Source of the DNA: Pararhizobium sp. IMCC3301
GTDB lineage: Bacteria; Pseudomonadota; Alphaproteobacteria; Rhizobiales; GCA-2746425
Assembly: GCF_030758315.1 (NCBI RefSeq)
Contig: NZ_CP132336.1
Location: 992,001-1,056,000 of the forward strand
Direction of reading: 5' to 3'
DNA: 64,000 bases
Numbering within the stretch: position 1 is the stretch's first letter; the number at the start of each line of letters is the position of its first letter. The notes under the pieces are model-generated. The model was not told the DNA's origin, did no database searches, and saw only the letters and a program-made list of their open reading frames with translations. Both the position numbers and the translations under genes were made by a program. Of this stretch, positions 50,039-60,252 are shown piece after piece.

Positions 50039-50767
50039 TCACTCCTTGGGATGGTTGGCCAGTGTCACCAGGCGGTCATGTTCCGTCACCGTGATTTTCT
50101 GCCGCCCGCTTTTCACCATGCCGGCCTGTTCCCAGGCACTCATCAGTCGCGAGACTGTGTGCAATGTTGTGCCAGTCATCTCCGAGATATCCTGACGCGA
50201 CAGCGGAAAATCAATCACAATGCCATCGTCGGTTTTGCGCCCGGTCTGATCGGCCAGCTTGACAATCGCATGAGCAACCCGCTGCTCCACGCGTTCCGTG
50301 GCCATTTCCACAATCCGGTCTTGAGCATCCTGCAGACGTTCACCCACCATGTGATAGGTGTTGGTCGCAAAGGTTGGAGATCGCGAAATCACTTCAGGCC
50401 AGATATCTCCGGGCCATCGCAACACCACGCAATCAGCCGCCGCGACGGCATTGGCGGGGTAAGTATCGCGGCCCAGCGCCTGGGCAACGCCGAACAATTC
50501 ACCGGCCGAAATATAACGTGCAATCACCTGCTCGCCGTCAGGGGTCACCCGTACAACACGAATATATCCATCCAGCAGAAGAAAAAACGAATCAGCCGGT
50601 TCACCGGCCGAAAATATGTAATCATTGCGGTTAAAGCGAACCGGCTTGGCCTGTTTTAATAGGTCCTGCAGGGCGTCCTTTGCAATATCCGCAAAGGGCG
50701 GCAAATTGGCAATCAGCGAAACATCCAGCACGTTGCAGAAAACCTTTCTGAGTTTGATGCAGCGCAA
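50039..50767 (-). CDS. Crp/Fnr family transcriptional regulator
   Basis: About 242 aa. Cyclic-nucleotide-binding fold: [40 protein letters not shown] and [11 protein letters not shown]. The helix-turn-helix is [20 protein letters not shown] near residues 190-210. The N-terminal cysteine cluster of FNR is not evident, so it is a nitrogen-oxide or redox regulator of the NnrR/DNR sort, not an oxygen-sensing Fnr. Start uncertain (ATG 50767; GTG 50731 is an alternative). Divergent from pseudoazurin by 64 bases. Confidence 0.85.
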
Positions 50768-50831
50768 TGTAGGCCGCGCCCGGCACTGTTACCACACTGG
50801 CATCGAACCAGTGCAACAGAAAGGGCACACA

Positions 50832-51287
50832 ATGCGCAAAGCACACATCATAGCAACACTTTTCGGAGCCGGACTGGCATTCGGGCTGACCACCGGTCTG
50901 ACAAATGCTGCCGAATTCGAAATTCAGATGCTCAACAAGGGCGAAAAAGGCGGCATGGTATTCCAGCCCGATTTTATCAGGGCAATGCCAGGTGACACCA
51001 TTAAATTTCTGTCATCCGACAAGGGTCACAACGCCGAAGCAATCGAGGGAATGCTTCCTGAAGGTGTCGAACCATTCAAAAGCAAAATCAGCAAGGATTT
51101 CGAGCTGACGGTTGATGAAGAGGGACTTTACGGCGTCAAATGCACCCCCCATTACGGACTTGGCATGGTGGCCGTCATCGCCGTGGGTGCTTCAGAAAAC
51201 GAGGATACTGCCCGCGCCGTCAAGCATCGCGGCAAAGCCAAGAAGCGCTTTGACTCAATCTTTGAGGAATACGACGCAACAAATTGA
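50832..51287 (+). CDS. Pseudoazurin (blue copper protein)
   Basis: 151 aa with a signal peptide ([20 protein letters not shown]) cleaved before EFEIQML. The four type-1 copper ligands of pseudoazurins are present: His in [12 protein letters not shown], and Cys, His, Met in [11 protein letters not shown]. It shuttles electrons in the periplasm to copper nitrite reductase, which is encoded convergently about 0.7 kb away. ATG at 50832 is chosen because it starts the signal peptide. A terminator follows. Confidence 0.92.
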
Positions 51288-51344
51288 TATCAGGTATTAA
51301 AATGAAGACAGGCCGCAAGTTGCGGCCTGTCAGACTCTGACCGG

Positions 51345-51369
51345 CCTCCGGCTTCTGCCGGAGGTTTTT
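51345..51369 (+). terminator. Terminator after pseudoazurin
   Basis: Perfect 8-bp stem (CCTCCGGC with GCCGGAGG, TTCT loop) followed by TTTTT. A second GC-rich hairpin without T-tract lies just before it at 51307-51331. Confidence 0.8.
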
Positions 51370-51905
51370 GATTCATTGAATCATGGAAATAATCCGATTT
51401 CACTACCAGCCGCTATTGCGCTGATGATGACGCTGGATGCCTTGATCCCGAAGATCATCTTCTGCCTCACATCAATGCGATGATCTGGCTACAACCATCA
51501 GACAACATCAAGCGGCCCAGGGCGAGTAGCCGCTGAAGAAGCGCGCGGCCTAAAGATAACCAGCGTCTCACGCACCGATCCTGATGCCGGCAATGCCACC
51601 ACCGACCGGAATGGCTATAGTCATGACACATCCAGCCCGGCCATCTGCAAAACCCGTCGGCTACTTGCTTCCTGCACTACAAACGTCAAGGCGCAACGCG
51701 CAGTTGCCTGCCATGTGCGGGTCACATCCGAGAATCCACAGCCGGGCATTTTTGAAGACCGTGGGGCAAAGCCATCAATAAGCAACGGAACTGAATATCA
51801 GGAAAATTGCAAATCCAATGGCTTGAAGGTCCAAACCACGCTCTCATCAGCCAATTGCCTCATCGTGCCTGAGCCAAAACCGTCAACAGCCACACCCCAA
51901 AACAA
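51370..51905. other. Non-coding stretch between pseudoazurin and nirK
   Basis: No convincing gene was found on either strand. The segment has short frames only, with no ribosome site. It may hold old gene debris. Confidence 0.4.
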
Positions 51906-51931
51906 AACCCCGCCTCAAAAAGACGGGGTTT
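51906..51931 (-). terminator. Terminator after nirK
   Basis: Stem AACCCCG/CGGGGTT with a loop of about 12 bases; on the minus strand it is followed by TTGTTTT. About 68 bases beyond the nirK stop. Confidence 0.7.
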
Positions 51932-51943
51932 GTCAGTAATCTG

Positions 51944-51972
51944 ACAGGCCGCAGGTCGCGGCCTGTTTTTTG
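51944..51972 (+). terminator. Plus-strand hairpin terminator near nirK end
   Basis: ACAGGCCGC and GCGGCCTGT form a stem around AGGTC, followed by TTTTTT on the plus strand. It would block transcripts entering nirK antisense. It resembles the hairpin at 51307-51331 that follows pseudoazurin. Confidence 0.65.
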
Positions 51973-51998
51973 GCTTTTACCGGGCTTGGTCAGTACCT

Positions 51999-53153
51999 TT
52001 ATGGCAGGGCTTTCCTTCCGGTGTAGGCCTGGCCGTAGGCGGTTGGTGCTTGCACCTGCGCCATCAGATCATTATCCCATTCGCCTTCGACAACCACATG
52101 GGCCGTCGCTCCAAGATTCACCGCTTCGATGAGGTTGTGGTTCACATAGGCGTAGACACCGGGCTGACGGAACTTGTACATCGCCGCACCTGCAGAGCCG
52201 CCCCGAATGAACCAGGTTTCCAGATCTCTGGCAGGAGGTGTGTTGAAACTTCCGGTTTCCCAGACAATATCGCCATGTCCGCCGATCAGATGCGGGCGCG
52301 TATCCCGGTTGGCCTGTGAATGCACAAACAACACAGTTTCACCGACAGTAGCAGTCAAGGCGTTGTCATTGGTCAGCGATCCTGCCTTGCCGTTGAACAC
52401 GACATGGGACGGAACGAGACCATTCATTACTTCAAGCGTATCGGCATAGGAACTGCCCAGATCTTCAAAGCGGAGATAGTCTCCGTCAGTATCTTTGGGC
52501 ACGTAAAAGTCATTCTCACCGATATAGAACACCTTGTCATAACGAACGGCCTGGTTTTTGTCATCTTTCAACCCGTCGCGCGGCAGGATCATGATGGCAC
52601 CGCTCATGCCCGACACGACATGCCACGGAATCATCGGTCCGCCCGGTGCGCAATGATAGACAAACGTACCAGGGCGAGTCGCCTTGAAGCGCAAAACCGT
52701 CAATTCACCTGGATTGACCAGCGTCAGCGCACCGCCGCCCAGCCCACCCGTCGCTGCGTGAAAATCGATATTGTGCTGCAGGGAGCTTTCCTCTGGATTG
52801 ATCAGTGTCAGTTCGACGTAATCGCCTTCATGGACCACCATCAGCGGGCCAGGAACGGACCCTTCAAAGGTCATCGCCTGCATCATGGTGCCGTCCTGAT
52901 CGATCTCCATTTCCTTTTCAACGATTGTCATCTCGAATTCGACAATGCTTGGCGGAAGCGTTGCAACCTGTTCGTGCTCATGCACGAAGGGCGGCGCAAC
53001 GAGTTTTACTTTTCTGCGTGGCATGTTGTTCAGATCCACATTCGCCCCGACCGGGGTCATGCTTTCTGAAGAGGCCGCCACTTGGGTTGCCACCAGGCTG
53101 GGCGCTGCGGCGGCAAATGCTGCTCCCATAAGGGCTGTACGGCGTGTGATCAT
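51999..53153 (-). CDS. nirK: Copper-containing nitrite reductase NirK
   Basis: About 384 aa from ATG 53153, which has an AAGGAG site 8 bases upstream; a longer frame to 53249 is rejected. A Tat signal ([20 protein letters not shown]) heads the protein. Copper ligands: His in [11 protein letters not shown] and, in [20 protein letters not shown], the T1 His, Cys, His and Met set. The T2/catalytic region includes [20 protein letters not shown]. The enzyme reduces nitrite to nitric oxide in the periplasm, receiving electrons from pseudoazurin. A candidate Fnr/NnrR box lies upstream. Confidence 0.95.
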
Positions 53154-53221
53154 GTTCGTCTCCTTCAACGGTCTTGGTTTATTCCGATGACGAAACCTAG
53201 GACGGGGGTGTGGTCTGCTCT

Positions 53222-53235
53222 TTGTTCCGGCGCAA
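53222..53235. promoter_or_regulatory. Putative Fnr/NnrR-type box (TTGTTCCGGCGCAA)
   Basis: TTG-N8-CAA, the consensus spacing for Crp/Fnr regulators, with an almost symmetric centre, 69-82 bases upstream of the nirK start. The regulator encoded at 50039-50767 is the natural candidate. Confidence 0.55.
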
Positions 53236-53276
53236 ACAAAACAAAGCATTCTGCCGGTATCGCCCCGTTGCAGACA

Positions 53277-53837
53277 TTAATTTGTTTTTCCAAATACGAG
53301 CAATTCCGGGGCAACTCCCAACGCATTCAATCGCTGATAGTGGCTCACCGAAAAATCACCTGCCAGAGCCTGCGCAAAGTCAAACAGATCAACGGCTTCC
53401 TGTCCGCCACCTGTATGTCCGGGATACAGCACCATGGTCACCGCCCCGCCTCGTTTCAGCAGTGCCAACGCCTGCTGCAAGGCCGCCAGTGTCGTCTCGG
53501 AGCGAGTCATAATTGTCTTGTCGGCACCAGGCAGATATCCCAGATTGAACACCACGGCCGCAACGGATGGCTCATCGCAATCTGCAAGGCATTTTGCCAG
53601 CGTCTCATGCCCGGCATGCAGCAGCGTTACCTCGGGCCTGGCGCCCAGTCTGTCAGCAGCATGTTGCAGCGCGCTTTCCTGCACATCAAACCCGAACACC
53701 CGCCCGGTCGGGCCAACTTCGTCTGCGAGAAACAATGTGTCATGACCGTTTCCGACGGTTGCATCAACGACCACATCTCCCGGCTGCAATATTTGACGCA
53801 GCATCAAATGCGCCATTTCAGTGGCACGCCACATCAC
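53277..53837 (-). CDS. Class I SAM methyltransferase of the YtqB/MnmM type
   Basis: 186 aa. Motif I reads VVVDATVGNGHDTLFLA near residue 22 and motif IV is AAVVFNLGYLPGADKTIM; the NLGYLPG sequence is characteristic of the YtqB group. In Bacillus the member MnmM methylates nm5U34 of tRNAs to mnm5U. The ATG overlaps the stop of the upstream FAD oxidoreductase by 4 bases, so the pair is translationally coupled and its function is probably linked. Confidence 0.75.
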   Translation of the reverse strand: MMWRATEMAHLMLRQILQPGDVVVDATVGNGHDTLFLADEVGPTGRVFGFDVQESALQHAADRLGARPEVTLLHAGHETLAKCLADCDEPSVAAVVFNLGYLPGADKTIMTRSETTLAALQQALALLKRGGAVTMVLYPGHTGGGQEAVDLFDFAQALAGDFSVSHYQRLNALGVAPELLVFGKTN

Positions 53838-54901
53838 ACACCCGCCTTGCGATTGGCATATTGCTGCACATCAAACTCTGCCGGAACAGCCGTTCCGACC
53901 ACCAGACAGGTACTGAATTGTTTTGCAAACCAGGGCCCGTGCAAAGACCCTTTCGACCCCAGTCCGTTGAAAAATCCAAGCCTGCGATGCACCGGGTGAA
54001 AGCCGATCACAGCCTTGCTTTCTCTGATGATCGGCCGTACGGCCGCGCTGTGCCCTACAATTTGATAGGGCACATGAAGGAAAGCCTTCAGCTTGTCTTC
54101 CAGTACAGCCCGCGCCTCCGGATTCGGCACTTCATCAAGATTTGCCCAATCATAACTCGCTCCAAGACGAAACTCCATCGGGTCTGCGCTCGGTGCCAGC
54201 CAGATTCCCCGATGCAGACTATGGGCAGGTAACGGGGCTTCAAAGCGCAAAGTCAGAATATCGCCCTTTGCCGCATTGAATGGCACAAATGCAAAATGCG
54301 GGTTTTGCGCTGCGGCATAGCCCTCGCATGAAATCACATAACGGGCAGAATGGCCGGCCACCGACACCGTGGCATCGCCAAAAGACACATCTTTAGCCCA
54401 GTCAAGCGTCACCGGCTCAATTGTCAGCAATGCAGCGGCCGCATCCAGAAACGCCGCCACATCCAGCTGCGCGGCTTTCATGGCAAACCCGCCGCCACTG
54501 GTATCAGCGACAGCGGCGGGCAGAAATTGCTCTACCGGCCCTTCGTCAAGATGCGCGCAAAATTGCAGGTCTCCCGCTCGCTTCTGCCACACCTCACGCT
54601 CCGCTAAACTGGTGAACAGGCGCAGCGCCGTGCGCTCATGAAAGAATGAATGCCCGGTCTGTTGCTCAACCCCGGAATAAAACGCTCTTGCATAGGGCAG
54701 AAATTCATCCACCCGCCAGCTCACCGTCAGCCTCTGGCCAGTGATCGGTGTCATCAGACCGGCAGCAATTCGCGACGCGCTGACCGGTTTGCCCGGGTCC
54801 AGCAGCAGCACCTTTTGTCCCGCTGCCCGCAAGTGCAGACCCAGCGTCGTTCCCGCCAGCCCCTGCCCTACAATAATGACGTCCCATGGCGTCTTCGCCA
54901 T
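53834..54901 (-). CDS. FAD-dependent oxidoreductase, MnmC C-domain-like
   Basis: About 355 aa from ATG 54901 (MAKTPWDVIIVGQGLAGTTL). The dinucleotide-binding GxGxxG is GQGLAGTTLGLHLRAAG; the DAO-family arrangement is clear, with SASRIAAGLMTPITGQRLTV, PFNAAKGDILTLRFE and a C-terminal NGLGSKGSLHGPWFAKQ, close in style to the FAD domain of MnmC (cmnm5U34 oxidation in tRNA). An ATG at 54943 lies upstream. Overlap with the YtqB/MnmM-type gene supports a tRNA-modification role, but D-amino-acid oxidase-like enzymes cannot be excluded. Confidence 0.7.
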   Translation of the reverse strand: MAKTPWDVIIVGQGLAGTTLGLHLRAAGQKVLLLDPGKPVSASRIAAGLMTPITGQRLTVSWRVDEFLPYARAFYSGVEQQTGHSFFHERTALRLFTSLAEREVWQKRAGDLQFCAHLDEGPVEQFLPAAVADTSGGGFAMKAAQLDVAAFLDAAAALLTIEPVTLDWAKDVSFGDATVSVAGHSARYVISCEGYAAAQNPHFAFVPFNAAKGDILTLRFEAPLPAHSLHRGIWLAPSADPMEFRLGASYDWANLDEVPNPEARAVLEDKLKAFLHVPYQIVGHSAAVRPIIRESKAVIGFHPVHRRLGFFNGLGSKGSLHGPWFAKQFSTCLVVGTAVPAEFDVQQYANRKAGV

Positions 54902-55045: not shown

Positions 55046-56278
55046 CTACACCGGCACACTGGCGGCGTCGGATCGTCTGGTCGCGACTAAAACGACGAAG
55101 GCTGCAATTGCCCCCAGCGAAGCCAGTTGGATCGCCGTTCTGAAATCAAATATCTGGGCAATCAGGCCCATTGACGAACCGGCGATGAGACCGCCCAGAA
55201 ACAGGCCATTCATGTAAAGCGAAGTTGCCCGCGCCATTCTGCCGGCAGCAAAGCTTTGCACAAAGGTGATACCAACCCCGGCAAAAATACCATAATAAAG
55301 CCCCTCCAGAGCTGATCCGACAATCATCTGCGGCAAGCTCGAAACTGCCGCCAAAACCATGAAGGCAACGATTCCAAGAAGTGCTGCGCCAAGCAGCGCA
55401 TTGCGTGCCCCGACACGCCCAATCAACCAGGGCGCACTCAAAATTGCGCCGATTTCAACAAATGTCTTGACCGAAAACGACAGACCGGGCGCAAAGGTTG
55501 GAAGCCCCACTTCCTGTATGTAAAACAGCGGCAACGCGCTGCTGCATAAAATATGCGCGAATGAAAAGAAGAAGCATGCCAGGCCAGCATGCCACAGTGG
55601 CCGGTTAATACTCTCCTGCCCGTTCGATGCCTTGTTCTGCAACGCCGGCCGTGCAGCTGCGGTGAAATCTTTTGGCATCACAAAATACCACAACAGCGCC
55701 CAGAAACCTGCAGCGATGAGCGCCATTTTGAAGACCGCGAGATGGCCGAATTGCCCTGCAATGAAAAACGCCAGCGCCGGAGACAGCATCCAGCCCAAGG
55801 ACGTCATGGAGCGCAAATATGAATTGTAGCGTTGAATGTTCAGCCTTTCACGCTCGGCATAGAGCCGGCCATAGCTGTACATCGCCGAAAGAGCGGCAGA
55901 CGACACTCCGAAACACAGGCTCGCGACACTCACCACGATCCAGTAGGATTGCACAATCAGTATCGCGGAATTTGCTATCACAAAGGCGGCGATACATAGC
56001 AGCACGAGCGGCGCAATCGTCCGGCCCTCGTCAATCCATTCGCCAAATCGGCGGTTGATCGTCACCGCCACCAACAGTGTCAGTGAAGAATAGACGCTGA
56101 TCATCCACGGCTCTTTACCAAGCCCCTCGACAATATAGACCCCCATGAACGGGACAATCGCCGAGTTCGACAGCACGCCAACCAGCAGCAGGACAAGATT
56201 CCACACTGATCTGTGATTCTGAATCAGGCCCATAAACTCCCAAACCGCCGCTGGACCGTTCAGCTTTCGTCTCGCCAT
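55046..56278 (-). CDS. MFS transporter, sugar-efflux-like
   Basis: 410 aa, 12 helices. Segment NRRFGEWIDEGRTIAPLVL is the cytoplasmic loop between helices 2 and 3. NSYLRSMTSLGWMLSPALAF and ATSLYMNGLFLGGLIAGSSM match the sugar-efflux (SET) subfamily style. Substrate is unknown. Reads leftward, toward the MnmC-like gene, 145 bases before that gene's start. Confidence 0.8.
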   Translation of the reverse strand: MARRKLNGPAAVWEFMGLIQNHRSVWNLVLLLVGVLSNSAIVPFMGVYIVEGLGKEPWMISVYSSLTLLVAVTINRRFGEWIDEGRTIAPLVLLCIAAFVIANSAILIVQSYWIVVSVASLCFGVSSAALSAMYSYGRLYAERERLNIQRYNSYLRSMTSLGWMLSPALAFFIAGQFGHLAVFKMALIAAGFWALLWYFVMPKDFTAAARPALQNKASNGQESINRPLWHAGLACFFFSFAHILCSSALPLFYIQEVGLPTFAPGLSFSVKTFVEIGAILSAPWLIGRVGARNALLGAALLGIVAFMVLAAVSSLPQMIVGSALEGLYYGIFAGVGITFVQSFAAGRMARATSLYMNGLFLGGLIAGSSMGLIAQIFDFRTAIQLASLGAIAAFVVLVATRRSDAASVPV

Positions 56279-58846: not shown

Positions 58847-60061
58847 CTAGATCACGGCCTTTTCAACAAAGGGTTGGTTTTTCTCAATCCGCTCATAATT
58901 AAACGGCGACAGGTCAAGTGTCCGGAACTCGCCATAGGTAATCAGCTCGGCTGTGCCTCGCCCCATGGCGGGTGACTGCTGGAAGCCATGACCCGAAAAC
59001 CCGTTAACGAAAATGAAATTTTCAACCTGTGTGTGCGGTCCCAAAATGGCATTCTGGTCGAATGAATTATAGGCATAATGCCCTGCCCAGGAATTGATCA
59101 GCTTGATCGCCTCAAACTGGGGAATGCGGTTGGCGATGACCGGCCAGACCTTGTCTTCCCATATCGAATGATCCTGTACGAAATCTTCATAGTCGACAGC
59201 CATATCCTCATCCGGCGCACAGCCAGCCAGATAATAAGTGCCGTCAGTGCGCATGTGAATTCCTGTCGGATCAATCGTCAACGGCAGATCCCTGTCCAGC
59301 GGTTTTGCAGCGTCAAAAATGAAGGTATATCGCTTGCGCGGCTCAACGGGTATTTCGATGCCTGCCATGCGCGAAGTCAGCACCGCCCGAGGCCCGGAAG
59401 CGTTGACCACCGTACCGCAGGAAATCTCCTCACCGGATTTCAGGGTAACGCTTTCGACCCGGCTGCCGGCGGAATTCCGCGTCATCGCAACCACTTCATT
59501 GCTGACATAGTCAGCACCCCGTTCCCGCGCCATCCGCTTCCACCAGTCAAACAGCGAATTGCCGTCAAAATAGCCTTCATCGACAAGATTATGATTGGCA
59601 CCGACAATATCATCGAGCCTGTAAAACGGATAATCGCGTGCGATGTCTGCCCGGCTCATATATTTTGTTCCAGCACCACAGGCGGCCTGAATTTTCTGCA
59701 ACTCTTTCAATTGGTCGGCAAAGGCCTGATTGTCAGCCAGATACATATAGCCGTAACTTTGCAGCACAAGCTCGGGTACTCTCGGATCATCGCCCATATA
59801 GCTCTGAAAGTTCTTCACAAAATCAGCAGCAAACTGGGAAATGCGTACGTTGATCTTCGCTGAAAATTGCTGGCGCATACAACTATTTGTGTGGGCAGTG
59901 GAGGAGAATTCATAAGTTGGGTCTCGTTCAACCACCAGAATCGACCCGTCAAAGTCCGGATTGTCGCTCAGGAACCAGGCAACTGACGACCCTAACATTG
60001 CCCCCCCGACAATCACCACATCATACCGGCCTTGCCTTGGTTTTTCCAAAATCCGCCCCAT
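58847..60061 (-). CDS. DAO-family FAD-dependent oxidoreductase
   Basis: About 404 aa from ATG 60061 with a GAGAGG ribosome site; ATG 60130 gives a longer N-terminus. FAD site GGAMLGSSVAWFLSD near residue 20, then VVERDPTYEFSSTAHTNSCM, DEGYFDGNSLFDWWKRMARE, and the C-terminal NGFSGHGFQQSPAMGRGTAE. The look is that of FOXRED1/sarcosine-type oxidases; the natural amine substrate is unknown. Reads into udh, so the two could form one transcript. Confidence 0.78.
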   Translation of the reverse strand: MGRILEKPRQGRYDVVIVGGAMLGSSVAWFLSDNPDFDGSILVVERDPTYEFSSTAHTNSCMRQQFSAKINVRISQFAADFVKNFQSYMGDDPRVPELVLQSYGYMYLADNQAFADQLKELQKIQAACGAGTKYMSRADIARDYPFYRLDDIVGANHNLVDEGYFDGNSLFDWWKRMARERGADYVSNEVVAMTRNSAGSRVESVTLKSGEEISCGTVVNASGPRAVLTSRMAGIEIPVEPRKRYTFIFDAAKPLDRDLPLTIDPTGIHMRTDGTYYLAGCAPDEDMAVDYEDFVQDHSIWEDKVWPVIANRIPQFEAIKLINSWAGHYAYNSFDQNAILGPHTQVENFIFVNGFSGHGFQQSPAMGRGTAELITYGEFRTLDLSPFNYERIEKNQPFVEKAVI

Positions 60062-60252
60062 ATAAATCCTCTCACGCCACTTCACCGGGATTTGCTTTGC
60101 CAGCCTCGTCCTGATGTCTCTGTGTTGCATAGATCGGCGCTGTTTTGAAGTTGATCCATCGCCCGCATCCGGTGCTTCGATTGTGCTCCGTGTGACAAAA
60201 CCACAGGCACTTTTGCACTGCTCGTACCAACCTGATTACTGGAACATCAAAT

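What the first reader, a model, noticed from the sequence alone, without database searches (positions are those of the whole stretch)
53277..54901. MnmM-type methyltransferase coupled to a MnmC-like FAD oxidase
The two genes overlap by 4 bases. In E. coli MnmC is a fusion of an FAD oxidase and a methyltransferase that complete mnm5U34; in Bacillus the methyl step is done by MnmM (YtqB). A separate FAD domain fused in operon with a YtqB-type enzyme suggests an alternative route with the same two steps.
Basis: inference. Interest (0 to 1): 0.6.

Follow-up and report, generated by a model that had tools for sequence, protein, structure and literature searches.

The report
FAD oxidase paired with tRNA methyltransferase
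Two overlapping genes very probably finish a chemical mark on the decoding letter of certain tRNAs, using a methyltransferase unrelated to the E. coli one together with a previously unassigned flavin oxidase that travels with it in two groups of bacteria.

Summary
Window 53277-53837(-) is MnmM by NCBI's equivalog model (189.8 bits, cut-off 135). The gene just upstream, 53834-54901(-), overlaps it by 4 bases and encodes a glycine-oxidase-type (DAO) flavoprotein, distantly related to the MnmC oxidase domain but below NCBI's cut-offs for MnmC1 and ThiO. In this genome no MnmC methyltransferase domain, no MnmC1 over cut-off and no TIGR01212 (MnmL-type) protein were found; MnmG is present. The pairing is not local. 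The FAD family sits next to MnmM in 6 of 6 order relatives that have MnmM and in 14 of 46 MnmM-bearing genomes of the phylum of a verrucomicrobial record. In one of these the two are a single 548-residue protein, FAD domain first. In the other 32 the FAD gene lies elsewhere, so 46 of 46 have it, against 5 of 67 sampled genomes of that phylum without MnmM. Gene trees of the two proteins broadly agree. Best reading: an MnmC(o)-like oxidase turns cmnm5(s2)U34 into nm5(s2)U34 and MnmM methylates it, a third way to complete mnm5U34 besides MnmC and MnmL-MnmM. Activity is inferred, not shown.

The parts
53834..54901 (-). FAD-dependent oxidoreductase of the DAO/glycine-oxidase superfamily, 355 aa; proposed cmnm5(s2)U34 oxidase (MnmC(o)-like)
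   Evidence: PF01266 4e-25; sub-cut-off hits to ThiO and MnmC1; AlphaFold model pLDDT 94.1 with glycine oxidase / MnmC fold; family co-occurs with MnmM
53277..53837 (-). MnmM (YtqB-type) nm5(s2)U34 tRNA methyltransferase, 186 aa
   Evidence: NF053511 equivalog 189.8 bits, cut-off 135; PDB relatives 4pon, 8h0s, 8h1a; D33, N98, Y101, Y138, H141 in 43 of 43 aligned homologues
53834..53837 (-). 4-base stop/start overlap of the two genes
   Evidence: in the five homologous loci the genes overlap by 1 or 4 bases or stand 3 bases apart
53948..53962 (-). codons of LGSKG (residues 314-318 of the FAD protein), aligned to LGSRG of E. coli MnmC (G619, FAD binding)
54035..54037 (-). codon of Arg289, invariant in 43 of 43; aligns with R567 of E. 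coli MnmC and the AGLRP arginine of glycine oxidase
53526..53546 (-). codons of NLGYLPG (residues 98-104 of MnmM), with the catalytic Asn and one of the two U34-stacking Tyr

Best explanation
The two genes encode the last two steps of mnm5(s2)U34 formation in tRNA. The FAD protein binds the N-carboxymethyl (glycine-like) arm of cmnm5(s2)U34 and takes a hydride from its alpha carbon onto FAD; the imine hydrolyses to nm5(s2)U34 and glyoxylate, and O2 would re-oxidise the flavin to give H2O2. MnmM then methylates the freed amine with SAM to give mnm5(s2)U34. Shown here: the gene pair, the families, the fold, the conserved residues, linkage, one fusion, co-occurrence and broadly similar gene trees. 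Inferred from the families: both reactions, the substrate and the order of steps. It works like MnmC, but its methyltransferase half belongs to a different family and its oxidase half to a separate DAO family.
For: Linkage: 6 of 6 genomes with MnmM over cut-off among 61 relatives; 15 of 17 genome-contig loci found with the FAD profile, partly the same genomes. Phylum of L065 (record titled Verrucomicrobiae): FAD gene within the fetched ~1.5 kb of MnmM in 14 of 46 MnmM genomes, elsewhere in the other 32 (19 of 19, 13 of 13), so 46 of 46, against 5 of 67 MnmM-negative genomes drawn at random from 242. Relatives: 6 of 6 against 1 of 55. Fusion: one 548-aa ORF, FAD domain 5-355, MnmM 362-547. Gene trees over 43 chosen genomes: distance correlation 0.84, reached by 0 of 2000 permutations. 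The family is discrete: members 157 bits or more, other DAO proteins scored 72 or less. Fold and FAD-site residues fit glycine oxidase/MnmC(o). MnmG present; no MnmC domain, no MnmC1 over cut-off, no TIGR01212 match at 1e-20 in the genome.
Against: No activity is shown. Sequence and fold are closer to glycine oxidases than to MnmC(o), and 11 other DAO proteins of this genome match the MnmC1 model better than this one (best 66.9 bits against 40.4; mostly over the first 200 positions). The conserved FAD-site residues are shared with ThiO and do not fix the substrate. In 32 of 46 genomes the genes are not neighbours. The FAD gene occurs without a found MnmM in G004 and in the genomes of L057 and L058 (L058's contig ends after the FAD gene) and in 5 of 67 others. 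TIGR01212 and the FAD pair coexist in 4 genomes, so they are not simply complementary. MnmC was not searched for in the 46 genomes. MnmE/MnmG can make nm5U with ammonium (PMC3648344 section 17), so MnmM does not strictly need an oxidase. Co-occurrence p-values and the tree correlation ignore shared ancestry, and in genomes with many DAO genes only the first 25 candidates were scored.
Confidence: 0.85

Rival explanations
1. The FAD protein is a glycine oxidase (ThiO-like) or other oxidase of free small amines that merely shares an operon with MnmM.
For: Top fold and profile matches are glycine oxidases (Z 36.1 against 32.6 for MnmC; 7cyx E 2.4e-23 against 3awi 5.6e-15). Whether the genome has another ThiO was not settled.
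Against: Far below the ThiO equivalog cut-off (53.2 of 250.8). Fused to MnmM once and present in 46 of 46 MnmM genomes of a second phylum even when unlinked. Where B. subtilis glycine oxidase has GHFRNG it has GLGSKG, closer to ALGSRG of MnmC. A free-amine oxidase would not be expected to track a tRNA methyltransferase.
Confidence: 0.08
2. The FAD protein acts on the wobble uridine but at another point, for example on an alternative adduct made by MnmEG, while MnmM works on nm5U made directly by MnmEG with ammonium.
For: MnmEG is reported to make nm5U with ammonium (PMC3648344 section 17).
Against: The FAD family was found in every MnmM genome searched with its profile or inspected, which suggests that MnmM needs its product. 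Oxidation of N-carboxymethyl amines, the chemistry of glycine oxidase and MnmC, fits cmnm5U directly.
Confidence: 0.05
3. The pairing is a neutral operon inherited from few ancestors without functional coupling.
For: The alphaproteobacterial copies form one clade, so their linkage counts as few independent events; co-occurrence counts are not corrected for ancestry.
Against: Linkage is found in several separate branches of the second phylum, one copy is fused, and genomes with unlinked genes still keep both.
Confidence: 0.02

Closest known systems
MnmC (E. coli, Y. pestis), bifunctional MnmC(m)-MnmC(o)
   Same: Two consecutive steps, FAD oxidase plus SAM methyltransferase; oxidase of the same fold and superfamily; counterparts of G518, R567, G578 and G619 conserved.
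   Different: Methyltransferase is MnmM, not Methyltransf_30; two genes, or in one genome a fusion with the oxidase first (opposite to E. coli MnmC); the oxidase fails the MnmC1 cut-off.
MnmL-MnmM of Bacillus/Streptococcus (MnmM: PMC9976899, sections read; MnmL: Jaroch et al. 2024, seen only as a citation and a table entry, content recalled)
   Same: Same methyltransferase family; the nm5 step supplied by a partner gene.
   Different: Partner here is a DAO flavoprotein, not a radical-SAM protein; no TIGR01212 match in this genome.
Glycine oxidase ThiO, CmiS2, iminodiacetate oxidase IdaA
   Same: Closest solved folds; FAD site and the AGxRP arginine aligned.
   Different: Act on small molecules (recalled, apart from glycine oxidase); ThiO cut-off not met; no known link to a tRNA methyltransferase (recalled).

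Membership tests
MnmM (NF053511) | Score over NCBI equivalog cut-off of 135 bits | tested here: met
   189.8 bits
MnmM (NF053511) | Catalytic and U33/U34-binding residues D34, N98/N101, Y101/Y104, Y138/Y141, H141/H144 (from PMC9976899) | tested here: met
   Conserved in 43 of 43 sequences compared, the window's included
MnmM (NF053511) | K11 and the U35 contacts Q173/Q176, N175/N178 of the Staphylococcus/Bacillus enzymes | tested here: not met
   Window has H10, A172, G174, by the alignment; K at the first site in 3 of 43, the other two columns vary. In bsMnmM K11E is nearly inactive, Q176A and N178A keep 20-60% activity
MnmM (NF053511) | Methylates nm5(s2)U34 in tRNA | not testable with these tools
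   Needs an assay
MnmC1 / MnmC(o) (TIGR03197) | Score over cut-off of 174.2 bits | tested here: not met
   47.6 bits; 12th of 19 DAO matches in its own genome
MnmC1 / MnmC(o) (TIGR03197) | FAD-site residues equal to G518, R567, G578, G619 of E. coli MnmC | tested here: met
   G247, R289, G300 in 43 of 43, G318 in 42 of 43; also found in glycine oxidases, so not specific
MnmC1 / MnmC(o) (TIGR03197) | Fold of the MnmC oxidase domain | tested here: met
   Z 32.6, rmsd 3.3, 339 aligned to 3ps9; glycine oxidases score higher (36.1)
MnmC1 / MnmC(o) (TIGR03197) | Fused to the MnmC(m) methyltransferase domain | tested here: not met
   Separate gene next to MnmM; no PF05430 in the genome
MnmC1 / MnmC(o) (TIGR03197) | Converts cmnm5(s2)U34 to nm5(s2)U34 | not testable with these tools
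   Needs an assay
ThiO glycine oxidase (TIGR02352) | Score over cut-off of 250.8 bits | tested here: not met
   53.2 bits
MnmL-MnmM system | A TIGR01212 radical-SAM protein (family of MnmL, recalled) in the genome | tested here: not met
   No match at 1e-20 in G000; 4 of 55 genomes searched have one

The most novel reading that the evidence does not exclude
This FAD family is the missing MnmC(o) activity for MnmM-bearing Verrucomicrobiota and for a clade of Hyphomicrobiales that probably got the pair by transfer. It defines a third, convergent route to mnm5(s2)U34, with at least one lineage that rebuilt an MnmC-like bifunctional enzyme from an unrelated methyltransferase in the opposite domain order.
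Probability: 0.75. Interest if true: 0.68.

Novelty: new variant of a known kind. Interest (0 to 1): 0.62.

Why it matters
The paper that found MnmM (PMC9976899, Discussion) says that the oxidase partner in MnmM organisms was unknown and worth identifying. Later work assigned a radical-SAM protein, MnmL, in Gram-positives (Jaroch et al. 2024; seen here only as a citation and table entry; details recalled). In the 46 MnmM-bearing genomes of the second phylum sampled here, a TIGR01212 protein was found in 4 and this FAD family in all 46. It gives a concrete gene to test and would extend non-orthologous replacement in wobble-uridine modification to both halves of the MnmC reaction. It would also give a function to proteins that the general models used here place only as DAO oxidoreductases.

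Tried and rejected
A full MnmC elsewhere in the genome: not found. MnmL as the partner: no TIGR01212 match in G000. ThiO: cut-off not met. A simple either/or between MnmL and the FAD gene: not supported, since the 4 TIGR01212-bearing genomes all have the FAD gene next to MnmM. The same FAD family beside the MnmC(m) domain of other members of the order: not found within the ~1.5 kb fetched on each side; the DAO genes there are other families.

The first structure model, from 6 close sequences, was poor (mean pLDDT 64.1) and was not used. A PDB sequence search with the single FAD protein gave one weak hit; the 32-row profile gave 37. Isoelectric points were computed as a hint of RNA binding and say nothing: 6.7 for the window's FAD protein, 5.2 to 9.7 over 43 family members, 5.4 for E. 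coli MnmC(o). A look for a separate ThiO among the genome's own DAO genes was begun and not finished. Jaroch et al. 2024 could not be read, so I do not know whether it already notes FAD-MnmM pairs or fusions; I recall only its abstract, which mentions fusion proteins and alternate arrangements. Searches of the held library for prior reports; from the titles and abstract starts listed, none is about this pair.

Rows left out of counts: for the trees and residue counts I used 43 genomes, namely 12 alphaproteobacteria, L063 and 30 of the 46 phylum genomes; the 16 left out are 10 near-identical ones, G556 and G652 (short FAD genes), and G611, G623, G626, G679. G582 has two FAD copies and one was used.

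Full report
The finding. Two minus-strand genes overlap by 4 bases: a FAD protein (53834-54901, 355 aa) and, downstream, MnmM (53277-53837, 186 aa). MnmM passes NCBI's equivalog model NF053511 with 189.8 bits against 135, matches solved YtqB/MnmM structures, and is the only PF06962 match in the 4.58 Mb genome. The FAD protein is a DAO-superfamily flavoprotein (PF01266 4e-25). Its matches to ThiO (53.2 bits, cut-off 250.8) and MnmC1 (47.6 bits, cut-off 174.2) do not pass.

Rest of the pathway in this genome. MnmG is present (807 bits; the search covered 16 genomes and matched in all 16, 15 over cut-off). There is no MnmC methyltransferase domain (PF05430), no MnmC1 over cut-off and no TIGR01212 protein at 1e-20. 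One result cuts against a simple likeness to MnmC: of 19 DAO matches to the MnmC1 model in this genome, this protein ranks 12th (40.4 bits; best 66.9).

Linkage among relatives. MnmM over cut-off occurs in 6 of 61 genomes of relatives, the window's own included, and in 1 of 385 genomes drawn evenly from the class, again the window's own. In all 6 the FAD gene lies directly upstream, overlapping by 1 or 4 bases or 3 bases apart, with 53-70% identity for the other five FAD proteins. PF05430 matched in 15 of the 61 (14 over cut-off, 13 strongly, E 2.8e-32 or better); none of the 15 has MnmM over cut-off. In Bartonella, which I recall as belonging to this order, cmnm5s2U is reported as present and mnm5s2U as absent (PMC10965804, passages), which fits the lack of both genes in most of the order.

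Linkage elsewhere. A profile of the FAD family found 17 loci in the named genome collection, 15 of them with MnmM next door. L057 has another gene there and L058's contig ends just after the FAD gene; no MnmM was found in either genome. Several of the 17 loci appear to be the same genomes as. Two are not titled as alphaproteobacteria: L063 (a MAG titled Akkermansia muciniphila, true placement not checked) and L065 (titled Verrucomicrobiae). L065's FAD protein is only 29% identical, yet MnmM still follows it.

The second phylum. Of 288 genomes in the phylum of L065, 46 have MnmM over cut-off. L065's own genome is one of them and was found through the FAD gene, so it is not an independent case. 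The FAD family lies next to MnmM in 14. In one of those, L091, the two are one open frame of 548 residues, FAD domain 5-355 and MnmM 362-547, as NCBIfam and Pfam also show. The other 32 have a FAD-family gene elsewhere in the genome (in G691 only about 3 kb away): 19 of 19 and 13 of 13. So 46 of 46 MnmM genomes have it. Of 67 MnmM-negative genomes drawn at random from the 242 in that sample, 5 have it, two of these only distantly (E about 3e-46). Among the 61 relatives it is present in 7: the 6 with MnmM, and G004, where no MnmM was found. Fisher tests give 2e-26 and 1e-7 but ignore shared ancestry, and at most 25 candidate DAO genes per genome were scored.

MnmL. Of 55 genomes with this pair or with MnmM, 4 have a TIGR01212 protein. 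All 4 are genomes with the FAD gene next to MnmM, so the two are not complementary. TIGR01212 also rings in E. coli, so it is wider than MnmL.

A discrete family. In one search FAD-family members score at least 157 bits against the 32-row profile, while E. coli MnmC, the DAO genes near MnmC(m) domains and the window's other DAO gene score 72 or less; the own genome gave a single match at 1e-30. Trees of the FAD protein and of MnmM over 43 chosen genomes are broadly alike: distance correlation 0.84, reached by 0 of 2000 permutations. In both, the alphaproteobacterial sequences form one clade (support 0.84 and 0.999) near the same verrucomicrobial group, with L063 placed differently. A transfer of the pair between the phyla is a natural reading; its direction rests on midpoint rooting only, and no tree test was run.

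Fold and residues. The model from 32 sequences has mean pLDDT 94.1. Its closest solved structures are glycine oxidases and CmiS2 (Z 34-36), then iminodiacetate oxidase (32.9) and MnmC of E. coli and Yersinia (32-33) (Foldseek). PMC3648344 (section 14) describes the MnmC oxidase domain as structurally close to glycine oxidase, with analogous chemistry, and reports no significant activity of E. coli MnmC on glycine or sarcosine. Counterparts of MnmC's conserved G518, R567, G578 and G619 (Table 2) are G247, R289, G300 and G318, conserved in 43, 43, 43 and 42 of 43. They are shared with glycine oxidase. The segment NGLGSKG resembles AALGSRG of MnmC more than AGHFRNG of B. subtilis glycine oxidase, a hint and no more.

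MnmM here. Residues that hold U33/U34 and serve catalysis in Bacillus and Staphylococcus MnmM (PMC9976899, sections 20-22) are kept in 43 of 43: D33, N98, Y101, Y138, H141. K107 is kept in 27 of 43. The site of K11 has H, Q, R or W in 40 of 43, and the U35 contacts Q173 and N175 are not kept. Since U33-U34-U35 was invoked to explain specificity for Gln, Glu and Lys tRNAs, the tRNA range may be wider here; this is inference.

Mechanism. Most likely the FAD protein oxidises the glycine-like arm of cmnm5(s2)U34 to an imine that hydrolyses to nm5(s2)U34 and glyoxylate, and MnmM methylates the product. The overlap, and the natural fusion elsewhere, argue for coordinated production; channelling is not implied. 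Everything after family and fold is inference from the chemistry of the superfamily and from comparative genomics.

Novelty. PMC9976899 (2023) calls the oxidase of MnmM organisms unknown. MnmL was later named for Gram-positives (seen as a table entry and citation in PMC12548931; content recalled). None of the papers listed by my searches of the held library is, by title and abstract start, about this FAD-MnmM pair, but the key 2024 paper is not held and may mention it. I file it as a new variant of a known kind: an MnmC-like two-step system built from MnmM and a distinct DAO family.

Noticed in passing
L033, L034, L035, L038, L039, L041: In 6 of 13 order relatives with a strong MnmC(m) match, a DAO gene of another family lies beside it on the opposite strand (only ~1.5 kb flanks seen); candidate oxidases for those methyltransferases. 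L032 carries a fused MnmC.
   Followed up: partly
L063:3673-3987, L065:182-520, L083:3-473, L090:142-489, L131:2460-2780, L132:2451-2771, L135:1176-1505: A conserved ORF of about 105 aa lies directly upstream of the FAD gene, often overlapping it, in 7 genomes, three of which have MnmM elsewhere. No Pfam match for the 4 of 7 scanned. A possible third gene of the system in one branch.
   Followed up: partly
PDB 22zt_A: A solved 'Predicted D-Amino Acid Dehydrogenase' (353 aa) matches the FAD profile end to end (E 1.9e-22) and carries GGLGSKG; its organism is not shown. It may be a structure of a relative.
   Followed up: no
window 55046-56278: An MFS transporter (TIGR00899 115.8 bits, below cut-off) lies upstream of the pair; its counterpart was found beside the pair in L003, L004, L006, L049 and L050 only, so probably not part of the system.
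   Followed up: partly
window 50039-53249: Copper nitrite reductase (TIGR02376 520.5 bits) downstream, with a cupredoxin-like ORF and a CRP/FNR-like ORF (by eye).
   Followed up: no
window 58847-60130: A second DAO-type oxidoreductase, not of this family (15.4 bits against the profile).
   Followed up: no
G487, G576, G620, G676 (L115-L118): Four genomes carry both the FAD-MnmM pair and a TIGR01212 radical-SAM protein; whether the latter is MnmL or another member was not resolved.
   Followed up: no
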